A model generated the notes under the pieces. That model was not told the DNA's origin. It made no database searches and worked only from the letters and a program-made list of their open reading frames with translations. The translations under genes were made by a program, and so were the position numbers. A DNA stretch of 64,000 nucleotides from a virus. Positions 5,314 through 50,385 of the stretch are shown in pieces. How positions within the stretch are numbered: position 1 is the stretch's first letter; the number at the start of each line of letters is the position of its first letter. The stretch spans positions 1 through 64,000 of IMG/VR virus record IMGVR_UViG_3300032331_003094. One strand, given 5' to 3'.

Positions 5314-5523
5314 ATGACGGACCCACATGACATCGAACAACGTTTAAATATTGTCGATATTTTGTATCGATCTGTGATGTTACTGGAAAACGAAGAGCTG
5401 GCTACGCAGCTGGGAGGTTACAGCTCTGACAATATCCAATGGGTTCTTAATGTTCTCCAGGGGATTTTTGATGAGCTTGATCATGTATTGGATTTAGAAG
5501 AATCCAATTACATTGATTATTAG
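5314..5523 (+). CDS. Small acidic protein (69 aa)
   Basis: Starts 2 nt after dcd and is probably co-translated with it. Almost entirely helical and acidic (DELDHVLDLEESNYIDY at the C-terminus). Function unknown. It converges tail to tail with the gene at 5520-5942, sharing stop-codon bases. Confidence 0.6.
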   Translation: MTDPHDIEQRLNIVDILYRSVMLLENEELATQLGGYSSDNIQWVLNVLQGIFDELDHVLDLEESNYIDY

Positions 5524-5942
5524 AAACCTACAAACCTACCAGCCATGCGCCCTGGTTTTGTGGCGTAGTTCGTGCTGCCGCCAGTTCCAATCCTGTCACC
5601 AAGGGTAGGAACGTTGGTTCCTTTGATATTTGCTTCAGTTCTTGGAGTACGACCACGAATTTGTGGTTCGTCAATCATTGTTTGTTGTTTGAACTTTCCG
5701 GCGCTCCTGGCCGCTGCCAAATACTTATTAATGTTTGATCCTTCCTTAGTGTTGCCGGTATTTGCTTTGTCGGCAATGGACCTTTCTTCTGAATCAAAAT
5801 GCCTAGTATCTGTGGTATACGCCCGCCCAGGGTTTAAATCACTTGTGTCGCCACCAGATGACCCGGCATCTACAGTCGGGTCATAATTAGATGGGATTGG
5901 AGATGACTCCTGTCCCTTCCTGGGGTCGTAAAATCTTTCCAT
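5520..5942 (-). CDS. Hypothetical, probably disordered structural protein
   Basis: 140 residues from the ATG at 5940-5942 (MERFYDPRKG); an upstream ATG at 5975 would add 11. Rich in Gly, Ser, Thr, Asp and Arg with no hydrophobic core and many turn formers (SGGDTSDLNPGRAYTTDTRHF), so probably disordered. It is leftward, like the late genes, and isolated between rightward genes. No family recognised. Confidence 0.55.
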   Translation of the reverse strand: MERFYDPRKGQESSPIPSNYDPTVDAGSSGGDTSDLNPGRAYTTDTRHFDSEERSIADKANTGNTKEGSNINKYLAAARSAGKFKQQTMIDEPQIRGRTPRTEANIKGTNVPTLGDRIGTGGSTNYATKPGRMAGRFVGF

Positions 5943-5982: not shown

Positions 5983-6315
5983 ATGTATGCTTATAAAAAT
6001 GACGCAGAACAATTAGAGGGTCGTCAAGATCCTGATGATTTTCTGCAAAAATTCATTACTTCAGATGATGAATTATTAAAGCGGATGGCCTGCTGCTGTG
6101 ATTTCGGCACACCGCTCGCAACTCATAATCATGATGTAGCATTGTACGACCAATATAATCGTGGTCTTACGTTATGTCAGGACGACAAGCCAAGGGTGAA
6201 TCTGGCACTGGAGGGGAATCGCCCCGGGGTGACTGGTTTCATCCCGTCAGTGGAGGAAGCGTACAAGTATCCGGGGACGTTACCAATGGGTCAAAAACTC
6301 TTGGTATCACTGTAG
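5983..6315 (+). CDS. Hypothetical protein overlapping the DUF3310 gene
   Basis: 110 residues. The last 47 codons are also read in another frame by the DUF3310 gene that starts at 6174. The C-terminal segment (VNLALEGNRPGVTGFIPSVE) looks like ordinary protein sequence, so both frames may be used. No family recognised. Confidence 0.5.
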   Translation: MYAYKNDAEQLEGRQDPDDFLQKFITSDDELLKRMACCCDFGTPLATHNHDVALYDQYNRGLTLCQDDKPRVNLALEGNRPGVTGFIPSVEEAYKYPGTLPMGQKLLVSL

Positions 6316-6638
6316 ATAGCAACCAGGACGGAGATTTATATTCCTTTACAGAATGTAAAGATGGTGTTTGCCCTGTCCCATGGGCAACAACACCAACACG
6401 ACCTGAATTGCAGCCAGAGACAATTAACCATCCATCTCATTATGTGGATGGCGCAATTGAATGCATTGAAGCAATTGAAGCGCAGCTAACCGCAGAAGAA
6501 TATCGTGGGTATCTAAAAGGAAACTGCGTCAAATATTTGTGGCGTGAGCGCCATAAGGGCGGTCTTGAATCATTAAAAAAATGCGGTTGGTACTTAGACC
6601 GTCTTATTCAGTTTGATGAAGCTAATCAAAACGGTTGA
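6174..6638 (+). CDS. DUF3310 protein (T7 gp1.7 / SaV-like nucleotide kinase family)
   Basis: Residues 85-150 carry the DUF3310 signature: INHPSHYVDGAIECIEAIEAQ, GYLKGNCVKYLWRERHKGG and LKKCGWYLDRLI. The family includes T7 gene 1.7, reported as a nucleotide kinase, and is frequent in phages. No ATG is found in this frame downstream of 6174, so the start is set there. That forces a 142-nt overlap with the upstream gene. The first 80 residues are low-complexity and may be poorly conserved. Confidence 0.82.
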   Translation: MSGRQAKGESGTGGESPRGDWFHPVSGGSVQVSGDVTNGSKTLGITVDSNQDGDLYSFTECKDGVCPVPWATTPTRPELQPETINHPSHYVDGAIECIEAIEAQLTAEEYRGYLKGNCVKYLWRERHKGGLESLKKCGWYLDRLIQFDEANQNG

Positions 6639-6931
6639 AGCTCATCGTCATCATCGCCGTCGTCTTCGTCATAAATACAGGCGGCGGCAAGCTCTTCTAA
6701 TTCCAAATCTGTTGGAATGTCAAAAGATAACTCAATATTTTCACCCGCAAGAATTTCCTTGACTGCTTGCCATTCCATCAAGCGTTGATGGTACAAATTC
6801 AAAAGTGCTGCTTGCAGTTCATCCCAAGTCATTTCTTGGGCAGCAAGCTCAGCCTTGCGCATGGAGAACTGCAGTTCTAACGGAAGTTCAAATTCCCGTG
6901 GCTCAACTGACCTATCCATTGCATTCTTCAT
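6626..6931 (-). CDS. nblA: NblA-like phycobilisome degradation protein
   Basis: NblA proteins are about 60-residue helical adaptors that bind phycobiliproteins and direct them to Clp proteolysis. Residues 14-62 follow the family pattern: E-F-E-L-P-L-E-L-Q-F-S-M-R, a short linker ending MTWDELQAALLNLY, then HQRLMEWQAVKEIL. An acidic C-terminal tail of about 35 residues (DEDDGDDDDE) is extra. Leftward, 4-nt overlap with the endolysin gene, so probably expressed late. As an auxiliary gene it would dismantle the antenna during infection. Identification rests on pattern, not a search. Confidence 0.72.
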   Translation of the reverse strand: MKNAMDRSVEPREFELPLELQFSMRKAELAAQEMTWDELQAALLNLYHQRLMEWQAVKEILAGENIELSFDIPTDLELEELAAACIYDEDDGDDDDELQPF

Positions 6932-7608
6932 GGCTTTGCTGACAATATTCTAAGACTATAGTCCAAATCGAATTCATCTTCGTCGTGATCAATCCAATCG
7001 GCTTGTTTAATTTTGAAGGCGTTTGCAAATTCTGCCAGTAAATATGGGTTTATTCCTTCTTCCAGCTTCTTGATTGCCTGGATTTCGTGAGGGGCGGCAG
7101 AATAATTTCTGAATGCAGCAAGAAGAATCTCACCTGCTTTGCCAAGTCCAACGTCAATATGACTTAGGAATAGACGAGCTTCTTCCCTGCGGCGTTCCAA
7201 AAGGTTGCCAACAACGATGCGATCTTGGTCAAAGATCCAGCATTTGATTTCTTCTGTGACGCCTACCCAGTTTTCTTGTTCAATCTGATCAATGATTGAA
7301 CTGTATAGAAAAGGTTTCCAGCCAATAGAATGAATAAAAGAAACCAACGCTTGACGCATTGAATTATCAATGTGTAAGTGAAGATCGTCTAGATCATCTT
7401 CAATGCAATTGATCTCATGCTTTAAGTATTCCAAGGCTTTTTCCTTGGTGCAATACTGGCCCGACTTTACGGGTGAACCATCTGGATAAAACTGTGTCCC
7501 ATATCCAAGGGTAAAAGGCATTCCTCCTGTGGATGGATCTGGGTATGCGCTTTCATTAAAACCTTCATATTTACGGATAATGTCTATCGCAGATATAAAG
7601 TAAAACAT
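6928..7608 (-). CDS. Endolysin, phage lysozyme (GH24-type)
   Basis: Hydrolyses the glycan strands of peptidoglycan. The N-terminal domain shows the T4-lysozyme-like triad layout: Glu in RKYEGF (residue 15), Asp in YPDPSTGG, Thr in PFTLGYGT. It continues with the lysozyme helices (SMRQALVSFIHSIG; RRREEARLFL). The last 75 residues form an extra acidic helical segment, perhaps for wall binding or regulation. 226 residues is somewhat longer than the single-domain enzyme. No signal peptide is evident, so release should need a holin, which I could not identify with confidence. Confidence 0.85.
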   Translation of the reverse strand: MFYFISAIDIIRKYEGFNESAYPDPSTGGMPFTLGYGTQFYPDGSPVKSGQYCTKEKALEYLKHEINCIEDDLDDLHLHIDNSMRQALVSFIHSIGWKPFLYSSIIDQIEQENWVGVTEEIKCWIFDQDRIVVGNLLERRREEARLFLSHIDVGLGKAGEILLAAFRNYSAAPHEIQAIKKLEEGINPYLLAEFANAFKIKQADWIDHDEDEFDLDYSLRILSAKP

Positions 7609-7656
7609 GGGAGCACAATAAGTACTCCCATTGTATACATAAATTTAAATTAATTG

Positions 7657-7779
7657 TTAGCCTTGACCACGGCTAAGCTTGCGGCCATGGTTGGGCTTGG
7701 AATGTTTACCATCCCCTTGTTTGGTGCGCTTGGGCTTGGACTCAATTTTAATGGATGTAGTTGACTTGGGTTTTGCCAT
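7657..7779 (-). CDS. Very basic 40-residue protein
   Basis: ATG at 7777-7779, stop TAA at 7657-7659. The sequence is dominated by Lys, Arg, Ser and Pro (MAKPKSTTSIKIESKPKRTK...), suggesting nucleic-acid binding or a disordered virion component. It sits in the 177-nt gap between the endolysin and the gene at 7786, in the same orientation. Confidence 0.5.
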   Translation of the reverse strand: MAKPKSTTSIKIESKPKRTKQGDGKHSKPNHGRKLSRGQG

Positions 7780-7785
7780 TGAAAA

Positions 7786-8073
7786 TCACCAGTTGTAGTG
7801 GCACGCCCACCAGCCGGGAGTCAGTTTGTCCTTCTTCTCGGCGCAGTTGTGGCGTGCCTTGAAGTTAGCACGTCTGCCCTCGTCATGGTGCGAAAGATAG
7901 TCATCATATCCTCGCAAACCAAAACGAACAATTCCTTCGCGCCCTTTGTCACAAGCCTTGACTACATACTTATGTTTATCTCCCTTGGGAGCCCGCTGAG
8001 GTTTATTACACGCCATCTTATCCTTCTGGTAGCGATGCGCCGCACTAGCTGCTTTTTTATGTTGTTCTGCCAT
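7786..8073 (-). CDS. Conserved cyanophage Arg/His/Cys-rich small protein
   Basis: 95 residues with the pattern KHKYVVKACDKGREGIVRFG then RRANFKARHNC and WWACHYNW. This 'KYxVxxxDxGxxxxVxFG ... FxARHxC ... WxC' layout recurs in small proteins of T4-like and other marine phages; function not established to my knowledge. Overlaps the 1305-residue gene by one base. Confidence 0.65.
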   Translation of the reverse strand: MAEQHKKAASAAHRYQKDKMACNKPQRAPKGDKHKYVVKACDKGREGIVRFGLRGYDDYLSHHDEGRRANFKARHNCAEKKDKLTPGWWACHYNW

Positions 8074-48503: not shown

Positions 48504-48531
48504 CGTCCTGAGCATGACGTTAAACTGCTCA
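48504..48531 (+). promoter_or_regulatory. Pseudoknot leader, copy 2
   Basis: Stem 1 CGTC/GACG (48504-48507, 48516-48519), loop CTGAGCAT, linker TTAAAC, stem 2 TGAGCA/TGCTCA (48509-48514, 48526-48531). Stem 1 differs from copy 1 at paired positions. Followed by a G-poor leader to ATG 48559. Confidence 0.8.
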
Positions 48532-48558
48532 ACACTACTAACTCACTACGAATTTACT

Positions 48559-50385
48559 ATGCAGTTTCAGCTACCTACTAACTTGCAGATTGAGTTACTA
48601 GCTTACGATCCAACGCTGAAGAAGTTGGCTCGCACTAATAACTCAAAGACCAAATCAACTAAGTCTAAGTTTCCACTGGGTCAACCTATTGACATCATCC
48701 CACAAGATGTGTTGCGCACATCGTTAGTGCAAGATGCCATTGATGCAATCAACAGTTGCCCAGTGCCACAACGTGTACATGAATTCAAACGCATGAATGG
48801 TTTTGCAAAGACCATGACATGCGCTGTGTTGTATCACTATGAATCTTGTTGGTATGCCGCATGGCTGCCACCCAAGGGACAGGAACAGGATTATGTTTAT
48901 GGTTATAGCTTTGCATACAAAGATAACAAGACTTCAAGGAACATGGTTCCATTCAAAGTTACAACTACGGAAGATACACAGATTGTTAAGTATGGTAGAT
49001 CTGATTTTATTACATACTCACGACTTGTAACCAAGCAAAATATCATTGATGGGAACAGCGGTCACAATTGGGTTTTGCCAAGTATTACTTGGGGCAAAGG
49101 TCAAGGCATTCGTGAAGTTATTCGACGCTTTGAAGAATCACTAAAGGAAACCATCCCTGTATGGGATGATGCCCGTGGTGGTATGTTTGCCAGGCTTAAG
49201 AATTCAAACTTTGTTTCATTACTTGAACTGGAAAACATCATTGATAAAGAGTTGAAGGATACATGGAAGCCATCAGTTGATAATTTGTTTCACATCATTG
49301 ATGAGTCTGTATTGTTTCCTAGTGATTATCATTATGGTGTTTATAGAAGCTACAAATGTATTCGTCACATCATTGACAAACCATTTTTTCGTAGATGGAT
49401 TCAAACAAAGTGTGATGAAACCATAGAACGCTTGAGTGATAATGACAATCGCTCAGAGCGTTACGTTAAACAACCATGGAATCAAATTAAGCATTTGTTT
49501 CGCATGATGTTGTACATAAATAATATCTGGCCTGATTGTCCTATTGATTATTATCAAACACACATTGACAATCTATTGGCTATATATAATTTGCATTCCA
49601 ATACAGATAACACGCGTGTATCTACGTGGTTAAACAAGCATATGCCTGTTGCATCTTTCTTTACGATTGTAGAAAAAGTTGTAACAAATCCAGATAAAAG
49701 ACTTGGTACTTGTACCACAGATTCTATGACTGGACTTAATCAATACTATATTTCAGATTGGGTTGATACTGTAAACATGCTTTGTGATATATTGGCTGAC
49801 AAAGAATCTAAGAATGAAACGTTAGCGCCACCAAAACGGTGGAGACTAACTGAGTTTCATGATTACATCCAAGGTGAAGCTTGGAAGGTTAAACATGTCA
49901 ACAATGCATTACCTCAGGATTTGTTCCCTGAACCTATCAAGGTACAAGTTGAACATACAGAAAAAGTAAATGCAACGTCAACATCTGACAAAATGATTTA
50001 CAACATTAACGACAATTTAAATTATGGTAGACCAATCCTTGATCTTATAGATGGTCATTATAAAACAACACCAGTTAACTATACATTTTTCCAACCTATT
50101 GATACCCATCAACTGGCGGCATGGGGCCAGGCTGTACGCAACTGCGTTGGTAATGCATCCAACTATGCAGATGGTGTACGCAAGAAGAAACATTTCATTG
50201 TCTTAGCAATGCTTGACAACAAGCCAACGTTTACTATCCAATTGGAAGTCGACATGGGCATGATGTCCGTCAAACAGATTGTTGGCATATCAAATGCCAG
50301 GCTTACCAGTGACCAAAAAGATTCCTACACCAAAGCTTTTTCGCAAGCGTTGAAGCTTCAAGAATCTAAGCTACAATCTGCGTAG
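48559..50385 (+). CDS. PcfJ-like protein (608 aa)
   Basis: Start at ATG 48559 (MQFQLPTNLQIELLAYDP); an in-frame ATG inside the pseudoknot at 48514 is a shadow. The C-terminal 110 residues match the PcfJ family: FQPIDTHQLAAWGQAVRNCVGNASNYADGV, then FIVLAMLDNKPTFTIQLEV and VKQIVGISNARL (Cys-Val-G near the middle). PcfJ-like proteins occur in plasmids and phages; biochemical role unknown. The N-terminal 500 residues are helical and unrecognised. It is under a pseudoknot leader. Confidence 0.72.
   Translation: MQFQLPTNLQIELLAYDPTLKKLARTNNSKTKSTKSKFPLGQPIDIIPQDVLRTSLVQDAIDAINSCPVPQRVHEFKRMNGFAKTMTCAVLYHYESCWYAAWLPPKGQEQDYVYGYSFAYKDNKTSRNMVPFKVTTTEDTQIVKYGRSDFITYSRLVTKQNIIDGNSGHNWVLPSITWGKGQGIREVIRRFEESLKETIPVWDDARGGMFARLKNSNFVSLLELENIIDKELKDTWKPSVDNLFHIIDESVLFPSDYHYGVYRSYKCIRHIIDKPFFRRWIQTKCDETIERLSDNDNRSERYVKQPWNQIKHLFRMMLYINNIWPDCPIDYYQTHIDNLLAIYNLHSNTDNTRVSTWLNKHMPVASFFTIVEKVVTNPDKRLGTCTTDSMTGLNQYYISDWVDTVNMLCDILADKESKNETLAPPKRWRLTEFHDYIQGEAWKVKHVNNALPQDLFPEPIKVQVEHTEKVNATSTSDKMIYNINDNLNYGRPILDLIDGHYKTTPVNYTFFQPIDTHQLAAWGQAVRNCVGNASNYADGVRKKKHFIVLAMLDNKPTFTIQLEVDMGMMSVKQIVGISNARLTSDQKDSYTKAFSQALKLQESKLQSA

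What the first reader, a model, noticed from the sequence alone, without database searches (positions are those of the whole stretch)
6626..6931. NblA-like antenna-degradation gene next to the endolysin
The helical pattern of NblA is present with an acidic C-terminal extension of about 35 residues not usual in host NblA. Phage NblA is known from some freshwater cyanophages. Here it overlaps the endolysin gene, suggesting late expression coupled with lysis.
Basis: partly seen in the sequence, partly recalled or inferred. Interest (0 to 1): 0.6.

Follow-up and report, generated by a model that had tools for sequence, protein, structure and literature searches.

The report
Phage antenna-degradation adaptor with acidic tail
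A lake virus of the S-EIV1 group of cyanobacterial viruses carries, next to its cell-wall-breaking gene, a remote relative of NblA, the small protein cyanobacteria use to feed their light-harvesting antennae to a protease; nearly all of its viral relatives carry it too, with a conserved extra tail that cellular NblA lacks.

Summary
The ORF at 6626-6931 (-) is real and is a divergent homologue of cyanobacterial NblA. Pfam NblA matches the window protein at E=7.8e-5, just under the curated cut-off, and all 20 scanned family members match. A profile comparison with host NblA aligns 51 ungapped columns at 95.5% probability; the best of 200 column shuffles reached 7.8%. AlphaFold predicts the expected helix-turn-helix plus an extra helix and a disordered tail. 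The acidic extension is real: 33-46 residues, about 41% Asp/Glu, under purifying selection, mostly ending in PF. It is absent from 93 host NblA sequences. The gene belongs to the S-EIV1 cyanophage lineage. It follows the lysozyme gene in 131 of 135 relatives, and 79 of 80 lysozyme-selected loci carry it, so it is a lineage core gene. The N-terminal motif matches host NblA; the position of Lys53 near the C-terminal end of the core does not. Best reading: a phage ClpC adaptor, probably delivering phycobiliproteins for degradation. Function is inferred, not shown. The overlap with the endolysin depends on start choice and is not conserved; late expression is likely from position only. Phage NblA is already known, so this is a new variant of a known kind.

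The parts
6626..6931 (-). nblA-like ORF, 101 codons plus stop; probable start is the conserved Met5 at nt 6919 (97 aa)
   Evidence: Met at this offset in 134/136 relatives
6749..6889 (-). NblA core (helix-turn-helix, residues 15-61)
   Evidence: PF04485 E=7.8e-5; genome-scale match at these coordinates E=3.5e-6; hhalign to host NblA 95.5%; predicted helices 18-32 and 36-63
6629..6742 (-). conserved acidic C-terminal extension (residues 64-101): ENIELxFDxPTDLELxELAAAC, a third predicted helix (75-87), Asp/Glu tail, terminal PF
   Evidence: 69 unique relatives: length 33-46, mean 41% D/E, PF end in 62/69; dN/dS median 0.034 for its first part; absent from host NblA
6928..7608 (-). phage lysozyme/endolysin directly upstream
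   Evidence: PF00959 E=3e-18; phrog_7 endolysin 1.1e-24; upstream of the gene in 131/135 relatives
6174..6638 (+). DUF3310 gene, convergent with nblA; the 3' ends overlap by 13 nt
   Evidence: PF11753 E=4.8e-17; opposite-strand downstream homologue in 134 relatives
7786..8073 (-). DUF5754 protein, upstream member of the same gene run
   Evidence: PF19058 E=4.6e-10; upstream in 120 relatives

Best explanation
The gene encodes a phage-specific NblA: a small helix-turn-helix proteolysis adaptor that docks on the host ClpC chaperone and brings phycobiliproteins to the ClpCP protease during infection. That would reduce excess light absorption and release amino acids for virion protein synthesis. 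Shown here: homology to NblA, the predicted hairpin, conservation, synteny and the extension. Inferred: ClpC docking (from the retained N-terminal motif), phycobilisome as substrate, late timing (position at the end of the structural-gene strand after lysozyme), and a role for the extension as an added substrate- or Clp-engaging element.
For: Every one of 20 family members matches PF04485, best 4.7e-6. The family profile finds the solved Anabaena NblA 1ojh at E=1.5e-4, colinear. Hhalign with 93 host NblA sequences gives 95.5%, 51 ungapped columns; 200 column shuffles reach at most 7.8%. The motif L7-x-L9, Q12, F13, R16, M25, L34, L37, Y38, Q40 (Anabaena numbering) is kept. Helices are predicted at 18-32 and 36-63, pLDDT 85-89. 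The context is cyanophage: S-EIVl, isolated on Synechococcus, has the orthologue beside its lysozyme. Purifying selection is strong. Other phage NblA proteins cause phycobilin loss when expressed in cyanobacteria (PMC9602691).
Against: The window protein is below Pfam's curated cut-off and NCBIfam's NblA model does not match it. Lys53, present in 89% of host sequences, is Ala/Gln/Glu/Asp here, and host Arg/Lys44 is an invariant Glu. Fold search of the small hairpin found no NblA structure. Near-universal presence in the lineage is more like a core phage function than an optional metabolic gene.
Confidence: 0.62

Rival explanations
1. A retargeted Clp adaptor: derived from NblA and still docking on ClpC, but the substrate end has been rebuilt (loss of Lys53, charge reversal at position 44, added helix and acidic tail), so that it delivers a different target, such as a picocyanobacterial antenna or linker protein, a host factor, or a phage protein at the time of lysis.
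For: N-terminal motif kept while C-terminal positions differ and are fixed to new residues; the extension is conserved and under purifying selection; near-universal presence beside lysozyme.
Against: Phage NblA proteins with divergent sequence still degrade phycobilisomes (PMC9602691); loss of one lysine may be compensated by the extension; no alternative substrate is known.
Confidence: 0.22
2. An NblA-derived protein exapted for a role unrelated to proteolysis, such as regulating the neighbouring endolysin, acting in virion assembly, or acting as an acidic nucleic-acid mimic.
For: Fixed position after lysozyme; strongly acidic tail.
Against: Retention of the NblA signature motif over large divergence; the acidic residues are concentrated in the tail rather than spread over the core; no match to PADLOC or PHROGs families.
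Confidence: 0.11
3. Chance resemblance of an unrelated helical phage protein to NblA.
For: Single-sequence scores are marginal; short helical hairpins are easy to match.
Against: Sequence and column shuffles never approach the observed scores; the match is ungapped over 51 columns and reciprocal.
Confidence: 0.05

Closest known systems
Cyanobacterial NblA (PF04485; Anabaena 7120 NblA, PDB 1ojh)
   Same: Ungapped 51-column alignment, same N-terminal motif, same predicted helix-turn-helix
   Different: About 33% identity; Lys53 and Arg/Lys44 not conserved; 33-46 residue acidic extension absent from host NblA of about 65 aa
Phage NblA of PaV-LD (and Ma-LMM01, MaMV-DC)
   Same: Phage-borne NblA homologue; PaV-LD NblA matches PF04485 at 4e-12
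   Different: PaV-LD protein is 54 aa without extension and lies by a thymidine kinase gene; in the tree it falls outside the S-EIV1-type clade, which sits on a long stem; Ma-LMM01 nblA is early and overlaps nrdA
S-SCSM1/S-TIM5-type phage NblA of marine cyanomyoviruses
   Same: Described as a remote NblA homologue in picocyanobacterial phages (PMC9602691)
   Different: 54 aa, no extension, no NblA match in Pfam, no detectable similarity to this family
Divergent NblA-like proteins of picocyanobacteria
   Same: Related to canonical NblA (hhalign 94.6%)
   Different: No direct similarity to the phage family (0.3%); about 60-75 aa without acidic tail

Membership tests
NblA (PF04485) | Sequence match to the family profile | tested here: met
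   All 20 scanned relatives match, best 4.7e-6; window protein 23.5 bits, just below the 25-bit gathering cut-off, so it would not be auto-annotated; host-derived HMM and hhalign significant against shuffles
NblA (PF04485) | Helix-turn-helix with short first and long second helix | tested here: met
   Predicted helices 18-32 and 36-63; Foldseek found no NblA structure, so it does not add support
NblA (PF04485) | Conserved N-terminal motif (reported ClpC-binding side) | tested here: met
   L7, L9, Q12, F13, R16 equivalents at 89-100%; role of the motif from PMC4103541
NblA (PF04485) | C-terminal phycobiliprotein-binding residues (Lys53 region; the exact residues are from memory) | tested here: not met
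   Lys53 is K in 89% of hosts, but A 72%, Q 11%, E 5%, D 4% here; position 51 stays hydrophobic
NblA (PF04485) | Four-helix dimer | not testable with these tools
   No multimer prediction available
NblA (PF04485) | Causes phycobilisome degradation through ClpC | not testable with these tools
   Needs experiment
S-EIV1-type cyanophage lineage | Shared gene order lysozyme-nblA facing DUF3310/dCTP deaminase genes | tested here: met
   S-EIVl lysozyme, orthologue at 65% identity and dCTP deaminase on the opposite strand in the same region; lysozyme 131, DUF3310 134, dCTP deaminase 113 of 135 relatives

The most novel reading that the evidence does not exclude
A lineage-wide phage Clp adaptor built from an NblA core in which the host substrate-binding end was replaced by a new conserved helix and acidic tail, so that the phage redirects host ClpCP proteolysis to a target other than, or in addition to, the classical phycocyanin rod, as part of a late programme adjoining lysis.
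Probability: 0.22. Interest if true: 0.65.

Novelty: new variant of a known kind. Interest (0 to 1): 0.42.

Why it matters
The S-EIV1 lineage has been described as widespread (title of Chenard et al. 2015), hundreds of IMG/VR stretches encode this protein, and its S-EIVl copy is deposited as 'hypothetical'; a survey of photosynthesis genes lists no nblA for the S-EIV1 group (PMC5332604). If it is an active NblA, antenna dismantling is a core, near-universal part of the infection strategy of this phage lineage, in hosts that mostly lack a canonical NblA (1 of 201 genomes of what is inferred to be their family passes the Pfam cut-off, and that hit is itself of the phage type). The conserved extension also offers a natural test of how NblA-type adaptors choose substrates.

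Tried and rejected
PHROGs, NCBIfam and PADLOC: no match for the protein. Foldseek against PDB and BFVD: no useful match for a two-helix hairpin. DNA-level search of phage records: no match. Tblastn of an Anabaena NblA fragment against phages: no match. Chance resemblance rejected by shuffles. Origin from picocyanobacterial NblA-like genes: not supported (0.3% in hhalign; separate clades), but the tree has few columns and cannot place the phage stem. Weak Pfam matches (TADA2A, PHF12, DUF4030) were dismissed as below cut-off and inconsistent across members. A relative (L256) that I first took for a phage contig in a genome bin proved to lie on a contig with trigger-factor, nuclease and rhomboid genes.

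Full report
What is there. The minus-strand ORF at 6626-6931 is real: MKNAMDRSVEPREFELPLELQFSMRKAELAAQEMTWDELQAALLNLYHQRLMEWQAVKEILAGENIELSFDIPTDLELEELAAACIYDEDDGDDDDELQPF. The window lies in an 82,212-base virus record. The upstream minus-strand gene 6928-7608 is a phage lysozyme (PF00959, E=3e-18; PHROG endolysin 1.1e-24). Terminase, portal-like virion and tail-fibre genes lie on the same strand. DNA polymerase A and SSB lie on the plus strand.

Is it NblA? The window protein matches PF04485 at E=7.8e-5 and 23.5 bits, just under the curated 25 bits. Searching close relatives in IMG/VR gave 485 stretches. All 20 aligned members match PF04485, best 4.7e-6, and their profile matches the solved Anabaena NblA 1ojh at 1.5e-4. 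I collected 93 unique host NblA sequences (one of them the PaV-LD phage copy) and 71 unique phage-type sequences. A host HMM finds the phage sequences (best 1.3e-6 at Z=100,000) and the phage HMM finds host NblA (best 7.1e-7). Hhalign gives 95.5% over 51 ungapped columns. Controls: the best of 21,300 shuffled sequences has E=0.6, and the best of 200 column shuffles has 7.8% and score 19.4 against 46.1. AlphaFold gives helices 18-32 and 36-63 at pLDDT of about 85-89, a less certain helix at 75-87, and a disordered acidic end.

How it differs. Column comparison shows the N-terminal motif preserved (Leu7, Leu9, Gln12, Phe13, Arg16, Met25, Leu34, Leu37, Tyr38, Gln40 equivalents). Lys53 (89% in hosts) is replaced by Ala, Gln, Glu or Asp, and Arg/Lys44 is an invariant Glu. 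[quoted passage not shown] The importance of Leu51 and Lys53 in Anabaena NblA is from memory (Bienert et al. 2006) and could not be read here. The extension is 33-46 residues in 69 relatives, mean 41% Asp/Glu, with a conserved ENIELxFDxPTDLELxELAAAC stretch and a PF end in 62 of 69; host NblA are mostly 65 aa with no such tail. Median dN/dS is about 0 for the core and 0.034 for the first part of the extension.

Distribution and context. Among 50,697 phage records only S-EIVl has an orthologue of the window protein (65%, beside lysozyme, 'hypothetical protein'). Lysozyme lies directly upstream in 131 of 135 relatives. Of the four exceptions, three have short contigs and one is a cellular contig. 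Starting instead from the lysozyme, 79 of 80 loci carry the gene, and the one without it ends 54 bases after the lysozyme match. It is therefore a core gene of this lineage, within the limits of these samples of close relatives.

Hosts and origin. Searching 400 genomes of that group with the phage profile finds only the same genome. Other members have short divergent NblA-like proteins, consistent with the 'divergent nblA-like gene' reported for WH8102 (PMC7439483). These are related to canonical NblA (94.6%) but not detectably to the phage family (0.3%). In a tree of 73 columns the phage sequences form one clade (100/100) on a very long stem, apart from picocyanobacterial sequences and PaV-LD. 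The donor cannot be resolved.

Mechanism and confidence. I think it most likely that this is an active NblA-type ClpC adaptor acting on host antennae (0.62). Homology to NblA itself I hold at about 0.95. The main uncertainty is whether the rebuilt C-terminal end still recognises phycobiliproteins. Late timing is inferred from position; Ma-LMM01 nblA is early, so it should not be assumed.

Novelty. Phage nblA is known in Ma-LMM01, MaMV-DC, PaV-LD, marine cyanopodoviruses, S-TIM5 and S-SCSM1 (PMC9602691). No paper read here names it for S-EIV1 (list of papers with both terms), but Nadel et al. 2019 and the S-EIV1 genome paper were not held. The finding is a new variant: a separate, extended, lineage-wide phage NblA.

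Noticed in passing
L375 (G472:C41) 5402-5710, minus strand: The only cellular relative found in 400 inferred Cyanobiaceae genomes: a 102-aa NblA with a similar acidic tail (PF04485 26.5 bits) on a contig with a trigger-factor N-terminal gene, SNase, rhomboid and a PD-(D/E)XK nuclease; possibly a phage-to-host or host-to-phage transfer.
   Followed up: partly
L258-L263 and L265, near the locus centre: Short divergent NblA-like proteins of picocyanobacteria (for example MTAPTSLSLESNFELERIKRSIDAMDD...) that score below the Pfam cut-off.
   Followed up: partly
window 7607-7631, minus strand: A 10-pair inverted repeat followed by T-rich sequence overlaps the start codon of the lysozyme gene; it may be a terminator or control of lysozyme translation.
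   Followed up: no
L026 near 2674: One relative has an in-frame stop in the middle of the nblA-like core although the downstream sequence still aligns; a pseudogene or sequencing error.
   Followed up: no
window 7650-7790, minus strand: A small basic ORF of about 40 codons (MAKPKSTTSIKIESKPKRTKQ...) between DUF5754 and lysozyme, read by eye from the sequence; S-EIVl has a 126-nt gene at the same position.
   Followed up: no
window 48514-50385, plus strand: 623-aa protein with a PcfJ-like domain.
   Followed up: no
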